From: Candidatus Kapaibacterium sp.
GTDB lineage: Bacteria; Bacteroidota; Ignavibacteria; Kapaibacteriales; UBA2268
DNA length: 64,000 nt
Assembly (NCBI GenBank): GCA_026390695.1
Contig: JAPLFL010000037.1
Location: forward strand, 1 to 64,000
Direction of reading: 5' to 3'
Below the pieces are notes generated by a model. That model made no database searches. It worked only from the letters and a program-made list of their open reading frames with translations, and was not told where the DNA came from. The position numbers were made by a program, and so were the translations under genes. This document shows positions 4,746-37,978 of this stretch, piece by piece. How positions within the stretch are numbered: position 1 is the stretch's first letter; each line of letters opens with the position of its first letter.

Positions 4746-4762
4746 AATAAGTAACTTTAATT

Positions 4763-4853
4763 AATGCAGAATGCAGAATGATTGGAATCGTTATTCATGG
4801 CTTTAATTCTTCTTTCTTCCATTTTGCATTCTTAATTTTACATTATACATTAA
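4763..4853. repeat. R1 dispersed repeat, copy 1 (short)
   Basis: First of four copies (others at 5530-5752, 6881-6975, 8435-8653). It shares the block running from GATTGGAATCGTTATTCATG through CTTCTTTCTTCCATTTTGCA with the copy at 5530. It stops exactly at the 3' end of the nuclease gene at 4854 and lacks the part that encodes the RHS-core remnant. Confidence 0.8.
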
Positions 4854-5438
4854 TCACCACTCCTTAGCTTTAAAACTCTCCCTATTAACAATTCTTGCAC
4901 TTTCACCGGTTGCTTTTATCAAGTAAAACCCTTTTTTGGCTGCAAATCTATCTGCTGCTGAATCAACGTTAATATAAGCCATAGCTCCGATTACTTTTTT
5001 TGTCCCATATTCAGGAAATACTTCTTTAAAGTCTTGCATATCCTCAATAAAATCATTGACATCCTCTATGCCAAGAGTTGTTTTGACTTCAACAACAACC
5101 ATTTCACTGCCATTAATTGCAAAAATATCGAATTCATAATCTTTTTCGTTAAAGTTTGTTTTTATTCGTGTGTAGGTGCGATTTACCTCAATATTTTTTG
5201 CCCGAAGCATTTCAATCAACTTACCTTCAACTAAAGATTCAACAAATTTACTCCATCTTTTCTCAGATTGGTCGAGTTTAGCAGTCAACTTATCAACATT
5301 TATAGTTGTTTCCTTAATCTTTGTATCTGTAGCTTGAAATTTCGCATCTGTGGCTTGGAATTTCGCATCTGTGGCTTGAAACATAGCCCAGACCTTTTCA
5401 AAGTTGAGTTGTTCTGTGGAGGCTGTATATTCCTGCAT
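4854..5438 (-). CDS. DUF3782-type protein with PD-(D/E)XK nuclease-like domain
   Basis: A 194-residue protein from the ATG at 5438. The longer frame from 5468 is not used because the leader shared with the neighbouring modules runs up to this ATG. The N-terminus holds three 7-residue repeats (FQATDAK) continuing into a coiled coil to about residue 70. The C-terminal half has YEFDIFAI followed by MVVVEVKTTL, the D...(E)xK signature of restriction-like nucleases, as in DUF3782 proteins. Members are usually solitary and of unknown role; DNA cleavage is inferred. It is the module of unit 1 in the repeat array at 4763-9373. Confidence 0.75.
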   Translation of the reverse strand: MQEYTASTEQLNFEKVWAMFQATDAKFQATDAKFQATDTKIKETTINVDKLTAKLDQSEKRWSKFVESLVEGKLIEMLRAKNIEVNRTYTRIKTNFNEKDYEFDIFAINGSEMVVVEVKTTLGIEDVNDFIEDMQDFKEVFPEYGTKKVIGAMAYINVDSAADRFAAKKGFYLIKATGESARIVNRESFKAKEW

Positions 5439-5500
5439 TTCAATAATCCAAATATTTTCCAAAAACAATATAGACGAAGTATTTTTCCAATTATTTTACT
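5439..5500 (-). promoter_or_regulatory. Shared module leader, unit 1
   Basis: Read on the minus strand, CTTCGTCTATA, a T-rich run and TTTGGAAAATA lead to the ATG at 5438. The same leader precedes hicB (6293-6340) and a DUF4160 gene (9197-9250), with a weaker match before 7581. This supports the start codon choice and implies a common transcription or translation signal in front of unrelated genes. Confidence 0.6.
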
Positions 5501-5529
5501 TCTCCCACATCTTATCAGGACAGTTCTTC

Positions 5530-5752
5530 AATGCAGAATTTATAATGCAAAATGAAGAATGATTGGAATCGTTATTCATGGCTTTAATTCTTCTTTCTTC
5601 CATTTTGCATTCTTAATTTTACATTTTGCATTGATTAAAGCTCTTCAGCAGGCTGCCGAATGGAGCATAATCAATATTAAATAAAAATAAACCTCGCATT
5701 CTACTTTCTATCTTTCTACTTTTCTACCTTCTATTTTTCTATAACCGGTCAT
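5530..5752. repeat. R1 dispersed repeat, copy 2, with RHS-core remnant
   Basis: About 220 bp, nearly the same as 8435-8653. On the minus strand at about 5684-5619 it encodes IDYAPFGSLLKSFNQCKM followed by TAA, the YDYxPFG signature of RHS/YD-repeat-associated core domains. The right part is a pyrimidine-rich stretch (CTACTTTCTATCTTTCTAC). Compared with the 6881 copy it carries an extra 21 bp (CTTAATTTTACATTTTGCATT less one base of context), which puts the stop into the frame. No other gene is seen between 5500 and 5823. Confidence 0.8.
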
Positions 5753-5822
5753 GTATTTTGAAGTATTTCTGCCAAGTTCCGATTTCGTCCTGTATGTAGC
5801 TCATTTCCATTCTGGTATAAAA

Positions 5823-6044
5823 TTATTTCGATTGATTCCATTCTTCTACGTTTATATCTGCTTGCTTCAATAGATTGTGAAGTAAGGCAACACCTACTTC
5901 TTTTGAATGAGGATTTGGTAAAATTAACCTTATTTTATTTTTCAGCATGAATGAATGATTTCCACCCGGATACGGCCCAATAAAACCAAATTTATGTAAA
6001 ATTTTAATAAAATCTTTTCTTGAAACAGGCGATAAATGCGGCAT
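5823..6044 (-). CDS. hicA: HicA-family toxin (mRNA interferase)
   Basis: 73 residues, typical HicA length. The dsRBD-like fold is shown by the N-terminal VSRKDFIKILHKFGF and the GGNHSFM motif, whose histidine is the catalytic residue of HicA mRNA interferases, then IRLILPNPHSKEVGVALLHNLLKQ. It overlaps the upstream hicB by one base (TAATG), the usual translational coupling. Gene order is antitoxin first, then toxin. It sits in unit 2 of the repeat array. Confidence 0.88.
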   Translation of the reverse strand: MPHLSPVSRKDFIKILHKFGFIGPYPGGNHSFMLKNKIRLILPNPHSKEVGVALLHNLLKQADINVEEWNQSK

Positions 6045-6292
6045 TATACCAATTCCTCAACCTGTTGATAAAAAGAAATTCCATTTAATTCTGGAATTTC
6101 CAAATTATTCTTTAAGCTGACTATCAGCCAGCTCTCAATTGATTCAATAAGATTCCGACGACATTCCTCAAATGTTGAACCTGAAGCCCAAAGTCCTTTT
6201 AAGGATGGAATGTCTGCATAGAAAGGGTATTCATCTTCAATTATTGAGTAATTTGCCTCATTTATAGCGGCATTAATATATTCGTTTATCAT
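6044..6292 (-). CDS. hicB: HicB-family antitoxin
   Basis: 82 residues with the HicB partial RNase H-like fold: YPFYADIPSLKGLWASGST, then FEECRRNLIESIESWL. The usual C-terminal DNA-binding domain is absent, as in the short HicB class. It is translated ahead of hicA with a TAATG overlap. The upstream leader (from 6293) is almost the same as that of the DUF4160 module at 8927-9196, so the promoter region appears to have been shared or exchanged. Confidence 0.85.
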   Translation of the reverse strand: MINEYINAAINEANYSIIEDEYPFYADIPSLKGLWASGSTFEECRRNLIESIESWLIVSLKNNLEIPELNGISFYQQVEELV

Positions 6293-6460
6293 TTTACCTC
6301 CAAAAAAAAGTAAAGACGAAGCATTTTTTCAATTATTTTATGCACTTTATTTCCCTGAGAAATATCCCAAGATTTTCAAGAAAATTGCTAATAATATTAA
6401 TACTTGTATAAATTATTCAAAAAACGAAAGAAGGAATGAGCTGAAAACTGGGGAGAAGAG
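6293..6460. repeat. R3 repeat / module leader, unit 2
   Basis: On the plus strand it runs from the A-rich stretch after the hicB start through AAAGACGAAGCATTTTTTC, ATTTCCCTGAGAAATAT and GAAAGAAGGAATGAGCTG. Nearly identical to 9219-9373, and about 70% like 8318-8431. On the minus strand it ends TTTGGAGGTAAAATG at hicB, with GGAGG as a good ribosome-binding site. Confidence 0.8.
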
Positions 6461-6705
6461 ACAGCTCGTTTGGATTTTAATGAAAAAAATAACTTATTTA
6501 AATTTTTCAAAACTTTATTCTGGAAACAGGTTCAAATCTTATAATTTTACTACAGGATCCCTATATTCTTTTTTTATGAATAAAAAAACTCTGTTCATTA
6601 ATACTAATAATTACATTTTTTATCAATATATCTATTTCAATTCTTATTTATCAAGGGACAGAGTTTCTCCCGCCAGTTGGAAAGCTGAAGGGAGGGAAAA
6701 ATTCC
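6461..6705. other. Intergenic, no supported gene
   Basis: AT-rich. An open frame from 6480 encodes a lysine- and tyrosine-rich peptide without any family resemblance and is probably chance. Near 6660-6695 is the text AGAGTTTCTCCCGCCAGTTG. No RNA gene was seen. Confidence 0.5.
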
Positions 6706-7053
6706 TTAGTACAATGTAGTATCTTTAATTATTAACTCTAAGTTAAAGTGGTTCGAATCGATTGATATCGGACAATAAACATCTGTGCTATTTTTTTCTC
6801 CTGGTTTTAAGACAACCTTATAACTAATATAGCTGACATAGGAATCAATACATAAATAATATAGATTTTTCCCTGATTCAGAATGTCTGGACTCTTCATT
6901 CATGGCTTTAATTCTTCTTTCTTCCATTTTGCATTGATTAAAGCTCTTCAGCAGGCTGCCGAATGGGGCATAGTCATATTGAGCTGTGATAAGCGGCACT
7001 GTGGAGGTTTTCTGCACAATACTTCTTACATTGCCAAGGTGGTAAATGGAACT
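6706..7053 (-). pseudogene. RHS-repeat-associated core fragment (orphan tip)
   Basis: Translation on the minus strand from 7053 gives YHLGNVRSIVQ followed by ITAQYDYAPFGSLLKSF. HLGNVR and YDYxPFG are the two hallmarks of the RHS-associated core that precedes variable toxin tips in polymorphic toxins. A stop lies in frame just upstream (7054-7056), so the huge N-terminal RHS shell is missing. About 75 residues of unfamiliar sequence follow the core to the stop at 6706. The fragment looks like a displaced C-terminal tip or the relic of one. The core part doubles as repeat R1 copy 3 (6881-6975). Confidence 0.7.
6881..6975. repeat. R1 dispersed repeat, copy 3
   Basis: Matches 5530-5752 and 8435-8653 over CTTCATTCATGGCTTT and AGCTCTTCAGCAGGCTGCCG. 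It lacks the 21-bp insertion of the other copies, so the RHS-core frame stays open through it. It is embedded in the RHS fragment 6706-7053. Confidence 0.8.
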
Positions 7054-7070
7054 TTACATAGCTTAATATA

Positions 7071-7307
7071 TTATAAGGGTATCCCTTTTGCATAAAGTAA
7101 TTCCGGGTCGAAGTCAACTCCATTTGAAAACTCAAGTGTGTCGATTGCAATGTGTGCTGATTTGAAAATTATAGGATTTTTAAGTTCACGAAATATCCCT
7201 TTTTCTAAATATGGCTTAATGTCAAATAATTTTACTTCTTTTGTGTCGAACTTCAATTTAACAAGGAAGTTGTCCAAACACTCCACTTCAATAACTTTTG
7301 GATACAT
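7071..7307 (-). CDS. DUF2442 domain protein, partner of DUF4160
   Basis: 78 residues: MYPKVIEVECLDNFLVKLKF, then LFDIKPYLEKGIFRELKNP and a C-terminal GVDFDPELLYAKG. These are the hallmarks of DUF2442 (xVxxVxxxxxyxLxVxFxdGxxxxfDlxpyL). DUF4160-DUF2442 pairs occur widely and have been predicted to be toxin-antitoxin modules; the biochemistry is not known to me. It follows the DUF4160 gene by 7 bp and is a diverged paralogue of 8654-8917. Confidence 0.8.
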   Translation of the reverse strand: MYPKVIEVECLDNFLVKLKFDTKEVKLFDIKPYLEKGIFRELKNPIIFKSAHIAIDTLEFSNGVDFDPELLYAKGIPL

Positions 7308-7314
7308 TGTTCAC

Positions 7315-7581
7315 CTACCTTAATGCTTCGATATGTTGAGGGGCTTCAGCATTCATTACAAGTTCCCAATTTGCAATAAGTTCGTCTTGATGCAGTTCAG
7401 CCCATGCAAGGATTAGTTTATTATGTTTTTTTGATAAATTACTATTGATTATTTCACAAGTCCTAATATCTACAGTTGCATCAAGTCCTTGATAACTCGC
7501 ATGGAAATGAGGTGGATTATGCTCATCTGGAGCAAAGAACATCCTGATTATTATTCCATAAAACATTGAAATTGAAGGCAT
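7315..7581 (-). CDS. DUF4160 domain protein
   Basis: 88 residues starting MPSISMFYGIIIRMFF with PDEHNPPHFHASYQG, the DUF4160 signature (H-x-P-P-H-(F/H)-H). The histidine cluster suggests metal binding or catalysis, but no activity is established. Translation is aided by GGAG 7-8 bp before the ATG. Same order and orientation as the paralogous pair at 8654-9196. Probably one half of a toxin-antitoxin-like module. Confidence 0.82.
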   Translation of the reverse strand: MPSISMFYGIIIRMFFAPDEHNPPHFHASYQGLDATVDIRTCEIINSNLSKKHNKLILAWAELHQDELIANWELVMNAEAPQHIEALR

Positions 7582-7909
7582 TAAGAACTCCTATATATTT
7601 TAAAAGTGTTAAGACGAAATAAATTATTGAATATTTTATCAATTATAATCCGAATGTATTTACACTACGTTCGAAGAAAAAAAGAAAACGAACTAAAAAC
7701 TTGCAATTAGATTTCGATAAAAAATTTCCAATCCAAAATCTTTACAATTAAATTTAAAACAAAAGCTAATCAACCGAAAAATTTAGTCTTTTATAAGATT
7801 AGTTTTCACAATAAAGTTCAAAATACTATATTCCAAAGGAGTTTCAATTGCTATAATTATTATGAAAAGATGAATAAAGCAAGTGTTTATCAGAAACAAA
7901 GCTGATTTT
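7582..7909. other. Intergenic between the DUF4160 gene and mini-ORF A
   Basis: AT-rich. The first 60 bp hold a weak version of the module leader (TTCGTCTTAACAC on the minus strand). The rest (about 7650-7909) shows no gene, hairpin or repeat that I can support. Confidence 0.5.
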
Positions 7910-8176
7910 ATGCGTTTCAACAGCGGAAATACCAATTTCAACTACTTTAAAGACATTTCCACGGAGTTTAAAGACATTTCCACGGAGTTTAAAGACATTT
8001 CCACGGAGTTTAAAGACTCTTCCACGATGTTTAAAGACATTTCCACGGAGTTTAAAGACTCTTCCGCGATGTTTAAAGACATTTCCACGACGTTTAAACG
8101 GACAAGCACGACGATGGAAATAAAAGTATCACCAATAGAAAAGTACATGCTGAACAAGACAAATCCAAAAAAGTAG
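7910..8176 (+). CDS. Mini-ORF A: 7-residue tandem repeat peptide
   Basis: An 88-residue frame from the ATG at 7910 (an in-frame GTG lies at 7883). Its core is eight tandem heptapeptides of the form FKDISTE / FKDSSTM (DNA 7946-8113). No family is recognised and no signal peptide is seen. Because the period is 21 bp without stops, several frames are open, including a minus-strand frame (8232-7942) with SLNSVEM heptads, so coding is not proven. Three further loci in the window have the same period (20981-21148, 31806-32010, 36197-36385). Possibly a minisatellite rather than a gene. Confidence 0.35.
   Translation: MRFNSGNTNFNYFKDISTEFKDISTEFKDISTEFKDSSTMFKDISTEFKDSSAMFKDISTTFKRTSTTMEIKVSPIEKYMLNKTNPKK
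7946..8113. repeat. 21-bp tandem repeat, eight units
   Basis: Every unit begins TTTAAA; the commonest is TTTAAAGACATTTCCACGGA plus G. Units 4 and 6 share the variant GACTCTTCC, so the array grew by duplicating unit pairs as well as single units. The last unit is diverged. Confidence 0.95.
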
Positions 8177-8206
8177 CAGAAAGCAGGAATTTGTCTTCGG
8201 AAAGCT

Positions 8207-8269
8207 GCCAAAAGGTAGGTACCTTTTGGCAATTTTCTTATAACAAAAGAAAAAAGGTAGCTACCTTTT
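8207..8269. terminator. Two adjacent perfect palindromes
   Basis: GCCAAAAGGTA at 8207-8217 pairs with TACCTTTTGGC at 8220-8230 across a 2-base loop, and AAAAGGTAGCTACCTTTT at 8252-8269 is a perfect palindrome. A third AAGTACCTTTTGCC follows near 8300. They lie just 3' of mini-ORF A; they could end its transcript, but no long T run follows, so a protein-binding site is an alternative. Confidence 0.5.
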
Positions 8270-8317
8270 CGTGTTTTTCCGATTACAGAAATGAAAAGTT
8301 AAGTACCTTTTGCCAAT

Positions 8318-8431
8318 TTTCCTGAGAAATATTCCAAGAATCCCAAGGAAATTGCTAAGAATCCAGATACTCAGTTAAATTTTACAAAAAACGAAAAAAG
8401 AAGGAGCTGAAAACTGGGGAGGTAGGTTTTC
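8318..8431. repeat. R3 repeat, diverged copy
   Basis: Aligned with 6345-6460 and 9260-9373: CCTGAGAAATATTCCAAGA, AAATTGCTAA, then GAAGGAGCTGAAAACTGGGG. It closes unit 3 and is directly followed by R1 copy 4. Confidence 0.75.
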
Positions 8432-8434
8432 TTC

Positions 8435-8653
8435 AATGTAGAATGTAAAATGCAAAATGTAGAATGTCTGGAAACTTCATTCATTGCTTTCATTCTTCTT
8501 TCTTCCATTTTACATCCTTAATTTTACATTCTGCAATGATTAAAGCTCTTCAGCAGGCTGCCGAATGGGGCATAATCAATATAAAATAAAAATAAACCTC
8601 GCATTCTACTTTCTATCTTTCTACTTTTCTACCTTCTATTCTTCTATAACCGC
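8435..8653. repeat. R1 dispersed repeat, copy 4, with RHS-core remnant
   Basis: About 90% like 5530-5752 over its full length. The minus strand encodes IDYAPFGSLLKSFNHCRM then a stop. It ends at the stop of the DUF2442 gene (8654). Confidence 0.85.
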
Positions 8654-8917
8654 TCATTCCCATTTTTCCACCCGCTCCGAATATGTTGTACTCGATAGCA
8701 AATAAACAGTATCAGGTGATATATCAAGCTCATTAAACCATGTTAATACACCATCTACTAACTTAACTTTATTAAAAAGTTCTGGATTCCTCAATTTCCT
8801 AAAATCACCTTTATCTAAAAACTGAGTTAAATCAAAAACTCCTTTTTTATTATCTTGAAAATGAATATCAAATTTATAATTTTCTATAATTTCAAAGCTT
8901 TTTATTCTTGGATGCAT
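8654..8917 (-). CDS. DUF2442 domain protein, second copy
   Basis: 87 residues: MHPRIKSFEIIENYKFDIHF, then GVFDLTQFLDKGDFRKLRNP and LTWFNELDISPDTVYLLS, all typical of DUF2442. It lies 9 bp after its DUF4160 partner. It is paralogous to 7071-7307 but only moderately similar, so the pair is not a recent tandem duplication although its flanking repeats are recent. Confidence 0.82.
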   Translation of the reverse strand: MHPRIKSFEIIENYKFDIHFQDNKKGVFDLTQFLDKGDFRKLRNPELFNKVKLVDGVLTWFNELDISPDTVYLLSSTTYSERVEKWE

Positions 8918-8926
8918 TTCGAATTC

Positions 8927-9196
8927 CTATTTAAGTGGTTCTATACGATAAGGAGTTTCTCCATTGACTGCTAAATCCCAATCAGCTATTATTTCCTCCT
9001 CATGAATATTAAACCATGCCTTTACTAATTCAAGTTTCTTCGTTGGCAATTTACCTTCAATCAATTCACAATCAGGGATTGAAATTACTGAGTATTCCCC
9101 TTGATACTTGATATGAAGATGAGGTTTGTGATGTTCGAGATTATCGAATGAATAAAGGTAAATTACTAATCCATAAAACATCGAAATTGAAGGCAT
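8927..9196 (-). CDS. DUF4160 domain protein, second copy
   Basis: 89 residues from the ATG at 9196. This start is chosen over the longer frame (9247) because MPSISMFYG matches the paralogue at 7581 and GGAG precedes it. Contains DNLEHHKPHLHIKYQG, the histidine-rich DUF4160 motif, and ends TPYRIEPLK like the paralogue (APQHIEALR). Putative toxin-antitoxin-like module with 8654-8917. Confidence 0.82.
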   Translation of the reverse strand: MPSISMFYGLVIYLYSFDNLEHHKPHLHIKYQGEYSVISIPDCELIEGKLPTKKLELVKAWFNIHEEEIIADWDLAVNGETPYRIEPLK

Positions 9197-9373
9197 AAAG
9201 AACTCCAAATTATTTTCCAAAAAAGTATAGACGAAGCATTTTTTCAATTATTTTATGCACTTTATTTCCCTGAGAAATATCTCAAGATTTTCAAGAAAAT
9301 TGCTAATAATATTAATACTTGTATAAATTATTCAAAGCACGAAAGAAGGAACGAGCTGAAAACTGGAGAGAAG
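9197..9373. repeat. R3 repeat / module leader, unit 4
   Basis: Nearly identical to 6293-6460 from AGACGAAGCATTTTTTC to GAGCTGAAAACTGG. It ends the array. From 9374 to 9562 I see only AT-rich sequence with no gene. Confidence 0.8.
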
Positions 9374-20935: not shown

Positions 20936-21226
20936 ATGCCGATATACTCAATAAATACGTCTCAGAAGACTTCGACACCTTTTAGCAAGAGACCAGCGTC
21001 GTTTAAGAAGGCTTCAGCATCATTTAAGAAGATACCGACGCCATTTAAGAAGGCATCGACATCATTTAAGAAGATACCGACGCCATTTAAGAAGACTTCA
21101 ACATCGTTTAAGGAGACATCAGCGCCGTTTAAGAAGGTTAATATACCGCATTATTTGATATATTCTATATTTATTACCATTATTTACTTATTTAATTATT
21201 TTATTTATATATTTAACGTTTATTAG
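20936..21226 (+). CDS. Mini-ORF B: 7-residue repeat peptide with hydrophobic tail
   Basis: 96 residues from an ATG: eight tandem heptapeptides FKKASTS / FKKIPTP (DNA 20981-21148), strongly basic, then a hydrophobic tail HYLIYSIFITIIYLFNYFIY (about 72-91) that could span a membrane. No family is recognised. The repeat begins each unit with TTTAAG, like mini-ORF A (TTTAAA). The minus strand is also open over the repeat, with FLNDVDA heptads that resemble the SLNSVEM heptads antisense to mini-ORF A. A chance open frame over a minisatellite is possible. Upstream, CTAATACAATATTTTACGTT is partly duplicated (about 20888-20930). Confidence 0.35.
   Translation: MPIYSINTSQKTSTPFSKRPASFKKASASFKKIPTPFKKASTSFKKIPTPFKKTSTSFKETSAPFKKVNIPHYLIYSIFITIIYLFNYFIYIFNVY
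20981..21148. repeat. 21-bp tandem repeat, eight units
   Basis: Units alternate between TTTAAGAAGGCATCGACATC and TTTAAGAAGATACCGACGCC types (each plus one base). The alternation points to amplification of a 42-bp pair. Confidence 0.95.
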
Positions 21227-31791: not shown

Positions 31792-32010
31792 TTAATATAA
31801 ATTATATTTCGTCGCTGGAAATTTATCTTTCAACGACTGCATATTATCTTCCGTCGCTGGAAATTTATCTTGCAACGACTGCAAACTATCTTCCGTCGCT
31901 GGAAATTTATTTTTCAACGACTGCATATTATCTTCCGTCGCTGGAAATTTATCTTGCAACGACTGCAAACTATCTTCCGTCGCTGGAAATTTATCTTTCA
32001 ACGGCTGCAA
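31792..32010 (-). CDS. Mini-ORF C: 14-residue (2 x 7) repeat peptide
   Basis: 72 residues on the minus strand from an ATG at 32010: alternating heptapeptides DKFPATE and DNMQSLK / DSLQSLQ, so the DNA period is 42 bp = 2 x 21 (about 31806-32005, nearly five units). Acidic and basic residues alternate, and it could form a coiled coil. No family is recognised; KFPATED recalls the KFQATDA coil of the nuclease at 4854-5438. Coding is uncertain. Confidence 0.35.
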   Translation of the reverse strand: MQPLKDKFPATEDSLQSLQDKFPATEDNMQSLKNKFPATEDSLQSLQDKFPATEDNMQSLKDKFPATKYNLY

Positions 32011-32104
32011 ATTATCTTTCTTTAAAAAATTATTTGGTTTTTAACTATAATTTTCGTAATTTGGTAATGGTTTATTTTTTTACATTTTAAAAAGAGGTTT
32101 TTTT

Positions 32105-33061
32105 ATGGCTAACAATTCCGATATTATGAGAAATTATCGCATTCCCGATGGCGAACTCGCACTTTTTACTAATAGTCTGACTATTGCTATGACGCGGGAT
32201 CTGACTGAACTGACCGACTACGGCATTACAAGTACGAAAATTACTGCTCTAACTACTCTGTGTACTGCTTTTCAGGCGCTGCCCGATGATAGTATTTATC
32301 GCACCGATCTGAGTGATGCGGTGGAGCAGCGGGACACGGCTAAAAATGCAGTTTTGAATATTATGCGTAGTATTTCCGTGCGAGCTAAGGCTGTTTTCGG
32401 GGATAATTCCGCGAAATACAGATCGATGTCGCCGGGAAATATTTCTAAATTTAATGATTCTGAGCTGTTGGTTTCGGCTCGTCAGGTGCATGGCGCGGCT
32501 CTCACGAATGTTACTGCACTTACGCCTGAAGGAATTACTTCAACTTATCTGACGGCTTTTAATGCGGACATTACGACTTTTGAAACGTCACTTATTACAA
32601 TTGCCGAAAGGAGAATTACGCGCGACGATTCGTCGGAAGCGAGAGTTGTAACCGGAAATGAACTCTACGCATTGGTGGCGAAGTATTGCGATTATGGCAA
32701 AACGATTTGGGATGGCGTGAGTCCGTCTAAGTACAATGATTATGTTATTTACGGCGGAAGCAGCTCTGGTCTCGGTGCTCCGACGGGTTTTGACGGGATA
32801 TTCGGGCTGGTTCCGGCGCCGCATATTGATATGACTTGGGGATCGGTTACGGGTGCAACTAATTACGATATATTTTATTCGCAGGTGGAGCTTGGACAGC
32901 CGGCTGGCACTTATTCCTTACAGCAGAATATTGCATCTGCGCCTGCGACGATGACCCCGCTACCTGATAAGCAGTATTATTTTTACGTGGTAGCGAAGAA
33001 TTCCACGGTGACGAGCGGTCATAGCACGGTTGTGAGCGTGAATACGGTGATTTCGGTTTAA
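32105..33061 (+). CDS. Hypothetical protein with duplicated helical part and C-terminal FN3-like domain
   Basis: 318 residues, no signal peptide. Two related helical segments (about 20-110 and 115-205) share the phrase LT-x-x-GITST-(K/Y)-(I/L)-TA. A fibronectin type III-like domain closes the protein (about 235-318, PHIDMTWGSVTGATNYDIFYS, YYFYVVAKNS). Its G+C content is visibly higher than that of the flanking genes. A purine-rich AAAAAGAGG lies 8-14 bp before the ATG. I do not recognise the family; the lack of an export signal is odd for an FN3 protein. Low-complexity repeat text follows the stop. Confidence 0.65.
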   Translation: MANNSDIMRNYRIPDGELALFTNSLTIAMTRDLTELTDYGITSTKITALTTLCTAFQALPDDSIYRTDLSDAVEQRDTAKNAVLNIMRSISVRAKAVFGDNSAKYRSMSPGNISKFNDSELLVSARQVHGAALTNVTALTPEGITSTYLTAFNADITTFETSLITIAERRITRDDSSEARVVTGNELYALVAKYCDYGKTIWDGVSPSKYNDYVIYGGSSSGLGAPTGFDGIFGLVPAPHIDMTWGSVTGATNYDIFYSQVELGQPAGTYSLQQNIASAPATMTPLPDKQYYFYVVAKNSTVTSGHSTVVSVNTVISV

Positions 33062-33851: not shown

Positions 33852-34058
33852 ATGTCTTACGTTACTGTAAACAGCGATTACAAAATTGAGATTCCTACGG
33901 ACATCATAAAGTCAATTAATGCTTTGCCCGGTCAGAAATTTCAGGTTCTTAAATTTAATAACCGCATTGAAATAATTAAAGTCAAGCCATTATCGGAAGC
34001 ACGCGGTTTTCTTGAGGGTATTGAAACGGATGTTCCACGCGAGGCTGATAGAATATGA
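33852..34058 (+). CDS. AbrB/MazE-family antitoxin (PIN-associated)
   Basis: 68 residues of the swapped-hairpin AbrB type: YKIEIPTDIIKSINALPGQKF then FNNRIEIIKVKPLSEARGFLEGI. The C-terminal part (RGFLEGIETDVPREADR) is the typical VapB tail that blocks a PIN toxin. Its stop overlaps the start of the PIN frame by 4 bp (ATGA). The partner toxin is frameshifted, so this antitoxin may now be unopposed. Confidence 0.85.
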   Translation: MSYVTVNSDYKIEIPTDIIKSINALPGQKFQVLKFNNRIEIIKVKPLSEARGFLEGIETDVPREADRI

Positions 34059-34449
34059 ATATAGTTGATTCATCCGGCTGGCCCCCGAACTGGCCCCCGA
34101 ATACTTTAGCAATGCCGATAATGCCGAATATTTTAGCACGATAATCAATAATTTTGAAGAATTGATTGTTCCTTCGATAACAATTACAGAAGTTTTCAAA
34201 AGAGTATTTCATCAACGAGGTGAAGAATCGGCATTGGAATCAATTGCATATATGCACTTTGGGGAAATTGTAAGTTTGACTGATGAAATTGCATTGGATG
34301 CAGCATATTTGGGTTTGGAACACAAATTACCAATCGCTGATTCAATAATATTATCAACTGCGAGAACGTATAATTGTACTTTATTCACACAAGATTCTGA
34401 TTTTGAGAATATTGATGATGTTGTTTTTATAAGGAAGAAGAAAAAGTGA
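34055..34449 (+). pseudogene. PIN-domain (VapC) toxin, frameshifted
   Basis: The ATG at 34055 opens MNIVDSSGW, the PIN start with the first catalytic aspartate, but this frame stops at about 34142. The remainder of a PIN domain (NAEYFSTIINNFEELIVPS, ITEVFKRV, then PIADSIILSTARTY, LFTQDSDF) lies in another frame, continuous to 34449. The shift falls at a 12-bp direct duplication, CTGGCCCCCGAA (34078-34101). Deletion of four bases in a CTGG repeat would explain it. The toxin is probably inactive; sequencing error or slippage-based phase switching are alternatives. Confidence 0.8.
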
Positions 34450-34470
34450 TTAGCTTTCCTTCTCTTCTTA

Positions 34471-34566
34471 TTTCCATCTGCCTTTCAGAGCAGGGGGATT
34501 TATTAATGTAAAATGAATAATGCAGAATGGAAAACCAAAATCAGTCTGAATTGAAGAAGCATTTTA
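34471..34566. repeat. R2 repeat, copy 1
   Basis: TTTCCATCTGCCTTTCAGAG CAGGGGG motif followed by the AATGCAGAATG / GAAGAAGCATTTT block. The motif recurs at 36519, 38005 and 38276. Confidence 0.75.
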
Positions 34567-34568
34567 CA

Positions 34569-35768
34569 TTAAGAAGCTTTCCTCAGCAAATAATATCCAC
34601 TATAACCACTCATTGCTATTATCAAGCTTATCATAACCCAAGTCGGAAACAGCGGAACTGATGAAGTAACATTTTGAGCTACAGGAAAATTCATCACTGT
34701 AACTTTTTGGCTATTTCCAAAATCCCTAAACACAACATAAGGATTACCATTTCTATTTATGGCTATTGATGTATAATCTGCCTGACCTGCGGAAAAACCA
34801 GCAGAACCAACAACTGACCAAGTTCCACCTGAAAATTTCATCATGGTTGCTTTTTTGCTATTCCCCCAATCCGAATACACAACATACGGAGTACCACTGG
34901 CGTTAATAGCCAAAGAAGTATAATCTGCCTGACCTGCGGAAAAACCAGCAGAACCAACAACTGACCAAGTTCCACCTGAAAATTTCATCACTGTAGCTTT
35001 AAAGCCATTAGGAACATCAGAATAGGCAATATACGGAGTTCCGCTTTGATCAATAGCTATTGTTGTATAATATACCTCACCAGCAGAAAAACCTGCGGTT
35101 CCAACAACTGACCAAGTTCCACCAGAAAATTTCATCACTGTGGCTTTATAGCTATTACCCCAATCCTTATAAACGACATAGGGAATGCCGTTACCATCAA
35201 TCGCTATTGATGTATAATCTTTACGGCTCCCAGTAAACCCAGCAGAACCAACAACTGACCAAGTTCCACTCGAATATGTCATCACTTGTGCTTCACCGCC
35301 ATTTACATCATCAGTAAAAGCAACATAAGGAGTACCGTTGTTATCAATAGCTATTGTTGTGTAATAATCCTGGTCAATTGTGAATCCTGGAGAACCAACT
35401 AATGACCAAGCTCCACTCAAGAAATTTTTCACGACTATTTTCAAGGCTATTCCCCAATCCCTATACACTACATACGGAGTGTCGCTGCCATCAATTGCAA
35501 TTGATGTCCATTCTGCTCTACCAAGAGAAATACCTCCGGAACCTAACTCTACCCAGTTTCCATTTAAATATTTCATAACAGTAGCTTTCTCACCATTTAC
35601 CATATCCTCAAAAGCAACATAAGGAGTGCCGCTGGCATCTATCGCTATTGATGTATATTGAACATCACCAGTCGAAAAACCAGCAGAACCAATATTTTGC
35701 CATGTTGTAGCACTTGCTGTAAAATTAGTAGCAAAATAAATAAACAAGAATAAGAATATTTTTTTCAT
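34569..35768 (-). CDS. Exported seven-repeat (propeller-like) surface protein
   Basis: 399 residues: signal peptide 1-20 (ending TASA), then seven tandem repeats of about 49 residues (GSAGFSAGQADYTSIAI, SGTPYVVYSDWGN, KATVMKFSGGTWSVV). Seven blades suggest a beta-propeller. The later repeats are almost identical at the DNA level (34740-35130), a sign of recent duplication or conversion. The C-terminus VPLFPTWVMISLIIAMSGYS with the basic end LLRKAS looks like a sorting tail: P-rich segment, hydrophobic helix, arginine/lysine, as in IPTL/PEP-CTERM-like signals, but the family cannot be assigned safely. Confidence 0.8.
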   Translation of the reverse strand: MKKIFLFLFIYFATNFTASATTWQNIGSAGFSTGDVQYTSIAIDASGTPYVAFEDMVNGEKATVMKYLNGNWVELGSGGISLGRAEWTSIAIDGSDTPYVVYRDWGIALKIVVKNFLSGAWSLVGSPGFTIDQDYYTTIAIDNNGTPYVAFTDDVNGGEAQVMTYSSGTWSVVGSAGFTGSRKDYTSIAIDGNGIPYVVYKDWGNSYKATVMKFSGGTWSVVGTAGFSAGEVYYTTIAIDQSGTPYIAYSDVPNGFKATVMKFSGGTWSVVGSAGFSAGQADYTSLAINASGTPYVVYSDWGNSKKATMMKFSGGTWSVVGSAGFSAGQADYTSIAINRNGNPYVVFRDFGNSQKVTVMNFPVAQNVTSSVPLFPTWVMISLIIAMSGYSGYYLLRKAS

Positions 35769-35779
35769 TTTATATATTT

Positions 35780-35810
35780 CAAAAATATTTGGTGTATGAT
35801 ATAAACCAAA
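35780..35810 (-). promoter_or_regulatory. Bacteroidota-type promoter of the seven-repeat protein
   Basis: On the minus strand TTTG (35810-35807), 19 bp, then TATTTTTG (35787-35780), a perfect match to TTTG-N19-TAnnTTTG, 12 bp before the ATG at 35768. Confidence 0.65.
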
Positions 35811-36172
35811 TGAATAAAAAGACCTTGTTTATTTCAAGAGACAGCGAATTCCTAAAGTATAAATCAAATGAATAAATTGATTTATTAATTTCAGCAATTA
35901 TATATTTGGTATAAATGGAATTAAAAATCATAAATTAAATTTATTAAATAACTTACGAGAATAAGAATTTGTTTTGTTTATGAAGTTTATCACGATTTTT
36001 TCCTTTATTTTATGTCAAATTTTATTAATAATTCTTATTTCAGAGGAGTTAAATTGCAAGAATTATGCCATTAATAATAAATTTATTAATAATTCTTTTG
36101 TAATAATTCCAAATCTTTTTCGAAAATTTGTATTTTGTTAGTTCATTGAAATAATTATTTAGAGCTTTTATT
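35811..36172. other. AT-rich intergenic region
   Basis: About 360 bp with repeated text (AAATTTATTAATAATTC occurs twice, near 36025 and 36080). No gene or structured RNA seen. Confidence 0.5.
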
Positions 36173-36430
36173 TTGGAAATAATTTCAAGTATTATAGAAA
36201 ATAGTTCACAGACATTGGAAAATAGTTCACTGCCACTGGAAAATAGCTCACAGACATTGGAAAAAGGTTCACTGGCATTGGAAAATAGTTCACTGCCATT
36301 GGAAAATGGTTCACAGACGTTGGTAAATAGTTCACAGACGCTGGAAAATAGTTCACAGACGTTGGTAAATAGTTTACAGACTCGTCAGAAATGTAATTTC
36401 CTGGGTCTGTTTAAGTTTTTCCTTTGTTAA
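36173..36430 (+). CDS. Mini-ORF D: 7-residue repeat peptide
   Basis: 85 residues, but the only in-frame start is TTG at 36173, which weakens the case for coding. Nine heptapeptides ENSSQTL / ENSSLPL (DNA 36197-36385), then a short hydrophobic end CNFLGLFKFFLC. No family recognised. The fourth locus with a 21-bp period in the window. Confidence 0.3.
   Translation: MEIISSIIENSSQTLENSSLPLENSSQTLEKGSLALENSSLPLENGSQTLVNSSQTLENSSQTLVNSLQTRQKCNFLGLFKFFLC
36197..36385. repeat. 21-bp tandem repeat, nine units
   Basis: Consensus GAAAATAGTTCACAGACATT plus G; two classes of unit (CAGAC and CTGCC) are interspersed. Confidence 0.95.
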
Positions 36431-36518
36431 TTAATGTTTTGCCAATCTAATTTATTCTGTCAGCCGCTACAATTGACGGGATAGAAATAAGGTTTTCTGG
36501 AATTGAATTTTTCATCTT

Positions 36519-36625
36519 GTCCATCTGACTTTCAGAGCAAGGGGAATTAATGCAAAATGAAAAATACAGAATGCAGAATGCAGAATGGAAATCCAGCATT
36601 TTGCATTGTATATAAAAGCACTCTT
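36519..36625. repeat. R2 repeat, copy 2
   Basis: GTCCATCTGACTTTCAGAGC AAGGGG, then AATGCAGAATGCAGAATGG and CCAGCATTTTGCATTG. It lies upstream of the RelE-type module. Confidence 0.75.
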
Positions 36626-36704
36626 TCGGTTAGGGAAGAGTGTGTGATAGGTACTATTAAAATAAAAAAAATTTACATACGTTTTTAGCAATTTTGGAGT
36701 TTTT

Positions 36705-36902
36705 ATGGAACAATTAGTCGAATCATTATCAATTAAGGATTTTAAAGCGATTATTAAATCTACTGTTGAGGAAACTCTTCAAAACAACATTGAAGACATA
36801 ATCGCATTTAATTCACCAAATTACATTAATTCAATTGAAGAGGCACGTGAAGATTACAAATCCGGAAATTTTGTGAATCTTAAGGATTTGATCAATGTTT
36901 GA
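36705..36902 (+). CDS. RelB/ParD-like antitoxin
   Basis: 65 residues: helical N-terminus (LSIKDFKAIIKSTVEETLQ) and the tail SIEEAREDYKSGNFVNLKDL typical of short antitoxins paired with RelE/ParE toxins. It overlaps the toxin start by 8 bp. A GGAG at 36698-36701 supports the ATG. Confidence 0.8.
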   Translation: MEQLVESLSIKDFKAIIKSTVEETLQNNIEDIIAFNSPNYINSIEEAREDYKSGNFVNLKDLINV

Positions 36903-37143
36903 GGTTGTTCTAACTAATCGCGCAATAAAAGATTTGAATAAGTTTCCGAATGATGTCAAATCGCGAATCCTCACAAAGATTAATGATTATTCTATCTCTC
37001 CTTTTGATTATGCAATTAAATTAACTAATAGCGAATTAGGAACCTACCGCTTTCATATCGGGGATTATCGAGTTATTTTTGATGTTGATATAAATACTCT
37101 GATTATATTACGGATAGGTCATAGAAGAGAGATTTATAGATAA
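36895..37143 (+). CDS. RelE/ParE-family toxin
   Basis: 82 residues with the RelE fold: VLTNRAIKDLNKFPNDVKSR at the start, then GTYRFHIGDYRVIFDVD and ILRIGHRREIYR at the end, where the basic and aromatic residues used by mRNA-cleaving RelE enzymes sit. Translationally coupled to the antitoxin. Flanked by R2 repeats. Confidence 0.88.
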   Translation: MFEVVLTNRAIKDLNKFPNDVKSRILTKINDYSISPFDYAIKLTNSELGTYRFHIGDYRVIFDVDINTLIILRIGHRREIYR

Positions 37144-37147
37144 TTAT

Positions 37148-37262
37148 ATAATGTAAAATGAAAAATGCAGAATGGAAATCCAGCATTTTGCATTTTGAAT
37201 TATACATTCTGCATTGAAGAAGCATTTTGAATTATACATTCTGCATTGAAGAAGCATTTAAG
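37148..37262. repeat. R2-type repeat with 32-bp direct duplication
   Basis: AATGCAGAATGGAAATCCAG and CATTTTGCATTTTGAATT, then two exact 32-bp units (37195-37226, 37227-37258) carrying TATACATTCTGCATTGAAGA. AATGCAGAATG and CATTCTGCATT can pair as a hairpin. Confidence 0.85.
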
Positions 37263-37350
37263 AGCGGGAGGCAGGAAGGAAATTTAACAGATTTACAATA
37301 AAAAATTATTTCATACTTCTTTGTGGATTTGTTATTATTGAAGGTTCCTT

Positions 37351-37659
37351 ATGCTGATTACAAATAAAGATATTGAAGAGATTAAAAAGAAATGCGAATT
37401 GTATAAAGTCAAGAATTTATTCTTGTTTGGTTCGGCAGCAACGGATAATTATCTGAAGAATAGCGATATTGACCTCTTGGTTGACTTTGATGAAATTATT
37501 CCTGAGAATTATTTTGAATTTTACTTCAATCTGAAAGATTTTCTGACTGAATATTTCGGGCGCGATATTGATTTATTAGAATCTCGTGCATTGAAAAATC
37601 CTTATTTAATCGAAGAAATTAATAACAATAAGATTCTGATTTATGGAAAAGCAAATTAA
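37351..37659 (+). CDS. mntA: MntA-type nucleotidyltransferase antitoxin
   Basis: 102 residues of the minimal nucleotidyltransferase family: LFLFGSAATDNYLKNSDIDL contains the GS...(S)DxD catalytic motif, and the third carboxylate is in GRDIDLLE. In MntA-HepT systems this enzyme AMPylates the HEPN toxin to silence it. It overlaps the hepT start by 17 bp. Confidence 0.88.
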   Translation: MLITNKDIEEIKKKCELYKVKNLFLFGSAATDNYLKNSDIDLLVDFDEIIPENYFEFYFNLKDFLTEYFGRDIDLLESRALKNPYLIEEINNNKILIYGKAN

Positions 37660-37978
37660 TATATACCTGAGCGATATTTTGGAGTCGATTGAGGAAATTG
37701 ATTCCTATTTTGTCGATAAAAAATATGATTTCTACGAATTTTTACAAGACGTCAAAACGAAAAGAGCTGTTGAAAGGAATCTTGAGATAATCGGTGAAGC
37801 GGTTAATAGGATTTTGAAGATAAAGCCGGATATTGAATTGTGTGGTTCAAAACATATTGTTGCGTTAAGAAATAGAATTATTCATAGTTACGATAATATC
37901 TCGTATGAAATAATTTGGGGAATAATGCTCAAACATCTTCCAATTCTGAAAGAGGAAATTATTAGATTAATTGACTAA
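37643..37978 (+). CDS. hepT: HepT-like HEPN ribonuclease toxin (DUF86)
   Basis: 111 residues, all-alpha HEPN domain. The Rx4-6H active site is seen as RNRIIHSY, with the trailing tyrosine that MntA modifies. The N-terminal YFVDKKYDFYEFLQDVKTKR and RNLEIIGEAVNRI are family hallmarks. The locus is flanked by R2 repeats. Confidence 0.88.
   Translation: MEKQINIYLSDILESIEEIDSYFVDKKYDFYEFLQDVKTKRAVERNLEIIGEAVNRILKIKPDIELCGSKHIVALRNRIIHSYDNISYEIIWGIMLKHLPILKEEIIRLID

What the first reader, a model, noticed from the sequence alone, without database searches (positions are those of the whole stretch)
4763..9373. Four-unit cassette array with common flanks and exchanged contents
Four units in the same orientation each read (minus strand) leader/R3 - small gene module - R1 repeat: nuclease (4854-5438), HicBA (5823-6292), DUF4160-DUF2442 (7071-7581) and DUF4160-DUF2442 again (8654-9196). 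The flanks are much more alike than the genes: R1 at 5530 and 8435 match over more than 200 bp, and the leaders of hicB and the second DUF4160 gene are nearly identical over about 150 bp, while the genes are unrelated or only moderately similar. This is the pattern of a modular platform in which small defence or toxin modules are swapped between fixed ends, unlike integrons (no attC or integrase seen) or known TA islands.
Basis: partly seen in the sequence, partly recalled or inferred. Interest (0 to 1): 0.8.

Follow-up and report, generated by a model that had tools for sequence, protein, structure and literature searches.

The report
Toxin-antitoxin genes in Rhs toxin array
The repeated ends of this gene array are worn-down pieces of Rhs toxin genes, between which small toxin-antitoxin pairs now sit in place of or beside the secreted-toxin cassettes; at least four related genera show the same arrangement, which I did not find described.

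Summary
The repeats are real: R1 229 bp at 92%, R3 leader 155 bp at 96%, with unrelated genes between. Most of it is decayed coding sequence of the RHS core tip (HLGNVRSIVQKT..YDYAPFGSLLKS..CPDKMWEK), followed by a dispersed palindrome. In the same genome, contig C77 holds a better preserved version: intact orphan rhs-CT genes plus immunity genes, alternating with R3-led toxin-antitoxin (TA) modules. One window segment is the tail of a C77 immunity gene (92%). A 24-bp leader motif occurs 8 times in the genome, 7 of them before these modules. At least four other genera of the family (Ignavibacteria/Kapaibacteria MAGs) and a second Rhs family in the same genome show it too: HicBA, ParE, PIN, BrnT, DUF4258 or DUF4160-DUF2442 modules lie between RHS-tip copies mostly 87-97% alike, the tip starting a few bases after the TA stop codon. 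No integron integrase, no attC-like site. Verdict: a degenerate orphan-rhs cassette array whose slots hold TA modules, a new variant of a known kind. Shared flanks with different contents are shown; recent swapping is inferred, because no second strain is available.

The parts
9219..9373 (-). R3 leader, full copy, before DUF4160 (second unit)
   Evidence: 96.1% to 6304-6458; 77-80% to three C77 copies
8927..9196 (-). DUF4160 protein (DhiT-like toxin)
   Evidence: PF13711 1e-20; TA role from DhiTA, PMC8198452
8654..8917 (-). DUF2442 protein (DhiA-like antitoxin); its last ~13 codons read the RHS DNA of R1 in another frame
   Evidence: PF10387 2e-9; overlap with RHS fragment
8429..8657 (-). R1 copy: RHS core tip remnant plus palindrome
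   Evidence: 91.7% to 5524-5752
8652..8693 (-). RHS core fragment EYNIFGAGGKMGMS
   Evidence: tblastn 4e-6
8536..8577 (-). RHS core fragment DYAPFGSLLKS
   Evidence: tblastn 4e-6
8316..8429 (-). R3, 5' part only; 8156-8429 matches the end of contig C125
   Evidence: 78.7% over 296 bp to C125:48-342
7582..7618 (-). Gene-proximal end of the R3-type leader before the first DUF4160
   Evidence: 7547-7618 86% to C77:21377-21448; sequence
7315..7581 (-). DUF4160 protein (toxin)
   Evidence: PF13711 1e-23
7071..7307 (-). DUF2442 protein (antitoxin)
   Evidence: PF10387 5e-10; 78% to a G009 protein, 27% to its array neighbour
6871..7041 (-). RHS core remnant HLGNVRSIVQKTSTVPLITAQYDYAPFGSLLKS (R1 of this unit)
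   Evidence: tblastn 6e-18
6579..6878 (-). Tail of an rhs immunity-position gene and its downstream DNA
   Evidence: 91.7% over 300 bp to C77:28001-28299
6304..6458 (-). R3 leader, full copy, before hicB
6044..6292 (-). HicB-like antitoxin
   Evidence: PF21748 5e-26
5823..6044 (-). HicA toxin
   Evidence: PF07927 3e-9
5499..5813 (-). Broken RHS core tip KMEMSY..DYAPFGSLLKS..CPDKMWEK with in-frame stops (contains R1 5524-5752)
   Evidence: tblastn 4e-17; whole-genome search 3.9e-5
5524..5640 (-). Dispersed palindrome inserted in the RHS tip
   Evidence: fold z -3.5; many copies in the genome
5447..5498 (-). Leader end (52 bp) before the nuclease
   Evidence: motif at 5473-5496
4854..5438 (-). 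Weakly PD-(D/E)XK-like nuclease gene, relative of C77:22481-23074 (which matches DUF3782)
4762..4854 (-). Last R1 copy: palindrome only
   Evidence: 95% to 5543-5635

Best explanation
The region is a degenerate orphan-rhs cassette array of a polymorphic-toxin system whose slots now hold type II toxin-antitoxin (TA) modules. An rhs locus typically has one full-length gene and a string of orphan pieces: core tip, variable C-terminal toxin (CT), immunity gene; the repeated core tip lets homologous recombination add, delete or exchange what lies between. Here TA modules with a shared leader (R3) sit between core tips, and in the window the Rhs toxin parts are gone, leaving tips (R1), TA modules and one immunity-gene tail. 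Shown: R1 is RHS core plus a palindrome; the R3 leader marks TA or nuclease modules; flanks are much more alike than contents; other genera and a second Rhs family of this genome have the same layout. Inferred: recombination between the tips makes the exchanges, and the TA modules persist because a cell that deletes one by tip-to-tip recombination is poisoned.
For: RHS core remnants at three of the four R1 copies. Intact orphan rhs-CT genes with the same R1 starts on C77/C125, with Rhs_assc_core hits. Immunity-gene tail shared with C77 at 92%. Leader motif: 7 of 8 genome copies precede these modules, 0 in the reversed control. Discordant identities of flanks and contents. Same TA-tip alternation in G001, G003, G009, G012 and own C41, tips mostly 87-97% alike and starting 4-65 bp after TA stop codons. 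HicA near RHS core 8 against 0.26 expected; 6 against 0.17 without the window's genome. Orphan-module exchange, and addiction that holds back tip recombination, are published for other bacteria (PMC3150448, PMC7043789).
Against: No strain-level comparison shows an exchange. A transposase control (1 of 21 within 1 kb) does not differ statistically from HicA (8 of 96), so counts alone do not exclude general accessory clustering. PIN toxins are not enriched. Flank similarity could also come from gene conversion. Immunity roles are by position only (Pfam found none for the CTs except DUF4329).
Confidence: 0.75

Rival explanations
1. Passive graveyard: the rhs array is a permissive accessory site; TA modules landed there by chance, local gene conversion homogenised the flanks, and nothing is exchanged through the tips.
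For: Tips and CTs are broken in the window; an IS3-type transposase fragment ends the C77 array; the transposase control does not differ statistically from HicA.
Against: Same orientation, shared leader and tight stop-codon-to-tip junctions recur in five genera and in two Rhs families of one genome; the TA genes are intact while the rhs parts decay.
Confidence: 0.3
2. Simple old tandem duplication of one unit followed by divergence of the genes.
For: Two units carry the same gene pair (DUF4160-DUF2442).
Against: The two pairs are 45% and 27% identical in protein, while one is 78% identical to another genus's protein; the 96%/92% flanks enclose unrelated modules.
Confidence: 0.05
3. Integron-like site-specific cassette array, with the palindrome in R1 acting as an attC site.
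For: Palindromic repeats lie between same-orientation TA modules, also on C21.
Against: No integron integrase over the cut-off (best partial 88 bits against 265); no RYYYAAC or GTTRRRY core sites in any R1 or R3; R1 is explained as RHS coding DNA plus a dispersed palindrome.
Confidence: 0.05

Closest known systems
Orphan rhs-CT/rhsI and cdiA-CT/cdiI cassette arrays (PMC3150448; also PMC8163844)
   Same: Repeated core-tip homology, variable contents, same orientation, toxin-antidote pairs, decay of older modules
   Different: Here classical type II TA modules with their own leader sit between the tips, and in the window no Rhs toxin remains
Rhs orphan toxin and immunity pairs acting as TA modules in Salmonella (PMC7043789)
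   Same: Toxin-antidote loss is harmful and holds back recombination between tips
   Different: There the pair is an Rhs-CT itself; here HicBA, DhiTA, ParE, PIN or BrnT modules lie between tips
DhiTA (DUF4160/DUF2442) of Dickeya dadantii (PMC8198452)
   Same: Same domain pair and the same toxin-first gene order
   Different: Located inside an rhs-tip array; function not tested here
TA cassettes of chromosomal super-integrons (own knowledge, not searched)
   Same: Strings of TA modules in one orientation between repeats
   Different: No integrase and no attC sites; the repeats here are RHS coding remnants

Membership tests
Orphan rhs-CT cassette array | Repeated RHS core tip at the start of each cassette | tested here: met
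   Core remnants in three of four R1 copies; intact on C77/C125
Orphan rhs-CT cassette array | Variable C-terminal toxin followed by an immunity gene in each cassette | tested here: not met
   Absent in the window apart from an immunity-gene tail; present on C77. So the window is a derivative, not an intact member
Orphan rhs-CT cassette array | A full-length rhs gene upstream of the array | tested here: inconclusive
   2418-residue Rhs frame on C126, not linked to C77, C125 or C80 in this assembly
Orphan rhs-CT cassette array | Exchange of modules between strains | not testable with these tools
   No second genome of the species or genus is held
Integron | Integron integrase (IntI) | tested here: not met
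   No hit over the cut-off in the genome
Integron | attC sites with RYYYAAC/GTTRRRY cores between cassettes | tested here: not met
   None in any R1 or R3
Type II TA modules (HicBA, DhiTA) | Adjacent two-gene pair with the family domains | tested here: met
Type II TA modules (HicBA, DhiTA) | Toxicity neutralised by the partner | not testable with these tools
   Needs expression assays

The most novel reading that the evidence does not exclude
RHS core tips act as a general, integrase-free cassette platform in these bacteria: homologous recombination at the tips loads TA modules, under a shared promoter-like leader, into the same slots as secreted-toxin cassettes, and the TA modules protect the array from collapsing.
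Probability: 0.35. Interest if true: 0.75.

Novelty: new variant of a known kind. Interest (0 to 1): 0.6.

Why it matters
It links two toxin worlds usually treated apart, secreted polymorphic toxins and intracellular TA modules, through one recombination scaffold. It offers a concrete, testable answer to how orphan rhs arrays and chromosomal TA clusters persist.

Tried and rejected
Integron and simple tandem duplication were rejected. R1 as a single mobile element was rejected: it is RHS coding DNA plus a dispersed palindrome. An intrinsic terminator at the R3 start was considered: weak hairpins in some copies only, not claimed. A sigma-70 promoter in R3 was not supported above shuffles, so 'promoter-like leader' is inference. 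R3 in the relatives: one 27-bp marginal match. PIN toxins alone are not enriched near RHS tips (1 against 0.23 expected). One translation of the C126 Rhs was made in the wrong frame and not used. Literature searches for TA modules inside rhs arrays found none in the open-access library; subscription journals and preprints were not searched.

Full report
Observation. The repeats and genes are as described. R1 matches at 91.7% over 229 bp (5524-5752, 8429-8657) and the R3 leader at 96.1% over 155 bp (6304-6458, 9219-9373). The module DNA between them does not align better than shuffled DNA. Domains: DUF4160 and DUF2442 twice, HicA, HicB-like UPF0150, and a weakly PD-(D/E)XK-like nuclease. Only the hicBA unit and the second DUF4160 unit have both full flanks.

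What R1 is. Searching the whole genome (G000; the window is C80:1-64000) with R1 and R3 led to contigs C77 and C125. On C77, R1 copies are the starts of orphan RHS genes: core tip YDYAPFGSLLKSWTNP..RTKFLEKEKDAESG..GRFFCPDKMWEKYYSLSPYVYCGNNP, then a variable C-terminus, then a small gene in the immunity position. NCBIfam Rhs_assc_core hits confirm the tips. In the window the same core is present but broken: 5499-5813 (4e-17), 6871-7041 (6e-18), 8652-8693 and 8536-8577 (4e-6 each). The second half of R1 is a palindrome of AATGCAG/CATTCTGC type that is dispersed in the genome; it folds better than shuffles (z about -3.4) and brings stop codons into the RHS frame.

What the array was. Window 6579-6878 is 92% identical to C77:28001-28299, the end of a gene that follows an rhs-CT on C77. 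By inference an rhs toxin and most of its immunity gene once stood here and were deleted. C77 shows a fuller order: rhs-CT, immunity, R3-DUF4160-DUF2442, tip, leader-nuclease, rhs-CT, immunity, rhs-CT, immunity, R3-ParD/RelE-like pair (weak family support), rhs-CT, immunity, further genes, R3-DUF4160-DUF2442, rhs-CT. A full-length 2418-residue Rhs frame lies on C126, unlinked in this assembly.

R3. Its gene-proximal motif (AAATAAT..TTCGTC) occurs 8 times in 4.6 Mb, 7 of them directly before these modules, with none in the reversed control; the eighth (C56) precedes an unrelated TPR-like gene. Promoter function is inferred; a sigma-70 scan gave nothing above shuffles.

Content against flanks. 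DUF4160-DUF2442 at 8654-9196 shares 96% R3 and 92% R1 with hicBA, an unrelated module, but its closest gene relative among those compared is on C77 (60% protein identity for DUF4160), whose R3 is only 80% alike. DUF2442 at 7071-7307 is 78% identical to a protein of another genus (G009) and 27% identical to its array neighbour. A 97-100% identical 36-bp stretch of RHS core follows four different genes on C77. This speaks against simple duplication and shows contents and flanks with separate histories, by exchange or by conversion of the flanks.

Other genera. RHS core hits and TA toxins were mapped in 24 genomes, and interleaving was then read directly. G003: rhs-CT, immunity, DUF4160-DUF2442, tip, PIN pair, tip, BrnT pair. 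G009: HicBA, rhs-CT, immunity, tip, DUF4258 pair, DUF4160 fragment-DUF2442, tip. G001: DUF433-DUF5615, tip, ParE pair, tip, HicAB, tip. G012: tip, HicB, tip, PIN pair. Own C41, a different Rhs family: HicBA, tip, HicBA, tip. Within each locus most tip pairs are 87-97% identical (full range 84-98%), and the tip begins 4-65 bp after the TA stop codon. HicA lies within 1 kb of an RHS core 8 times against 0.26 expected, and 6 against 0.17 without the window's genome. A transposase control gave 1 of 21, not statistically different, so specificity beyond general accessory clustering is not proven by counts alone; the repeated stop-codon-to-tip junctions are the stronger argument. Named relatives are Ignavibacteria, Kapaibacteria and other Chlorobiota MAGs.

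Mechanism. Orphan CT modules are known to be bounded by the tip motif and exchanged between strains (PMC3150448). Recombination between long identical stretches of such genes is described as frequent, and as held back because losing an expressed toxin-immunity pair is harmful (PMC7043789). DUF4160-DUF2442 is a tested TA pair, DhiTA (PMC8198452). The simplest account is that TA modules occupy the same slots and are kept by the same addiction logic, while the unused secreted-toxin parts decay. Capture and exchange by recombination at the tips is inferred, not shown.

Not integron-like: no integron integrase over the cut-off and no attC core sites.

Limits. One genome per species; MAG contigs; immunity roles by position only; no functional data; the junctions were read in loci chosen because RHS and TA hits lay together.

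Noticed in passing
L042 3687-9673 (genome C21, about 19.7-25.7 kb): A run of seven or more TA modules (PemK/MazF, PIN-MazE, three HicAB, BrnT, YoeB-YefM) in one orientation, with the AATGCAG/CATTCTGC palindrome between several of them and no RHS tip seen.
   Followed up: partly
window 33852-37978: A second TA cluster in the window (AbrB/MazE-like plus PIN, a ParE-like pair, a nucleotidyltransferase-HEPN-like pair) with the same palindromes nearby; names by eye except PIN.
   Followed up: partly
window 7946-8098; also 20994-21137, 31799-32018, 36197-36381: Minisatellites of 21 or 42 bp that keep an open frame, in several places of the window.
   Followed up: no
window 32105-33061; C77:28556-29515 and C77:7710-8723; C125:3847-4236: A gene family of about 320 residues (MRNYRIxDxELxxFTNSL..) that recurs beside rhs and TA arrays; function unknown.
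   Followed up: no
window 4854-5438 and C77:22481-23074: The two nuclease genes share the leader and the N-terminus (MQEY..LNFEKxWAMFQ) at about 79% DNA identity but are 31% identical overall, as if the C-terminus were exchanged too.
   Followed up: partly
C77:26902-27060 and C125:3735-3847: The palindrome at the rhs tip brings a start codon (MEERRxKAMN..) in frame with the downstream orphan rhs-CT, so it may have created new starts for these genes.
   Followed up: no
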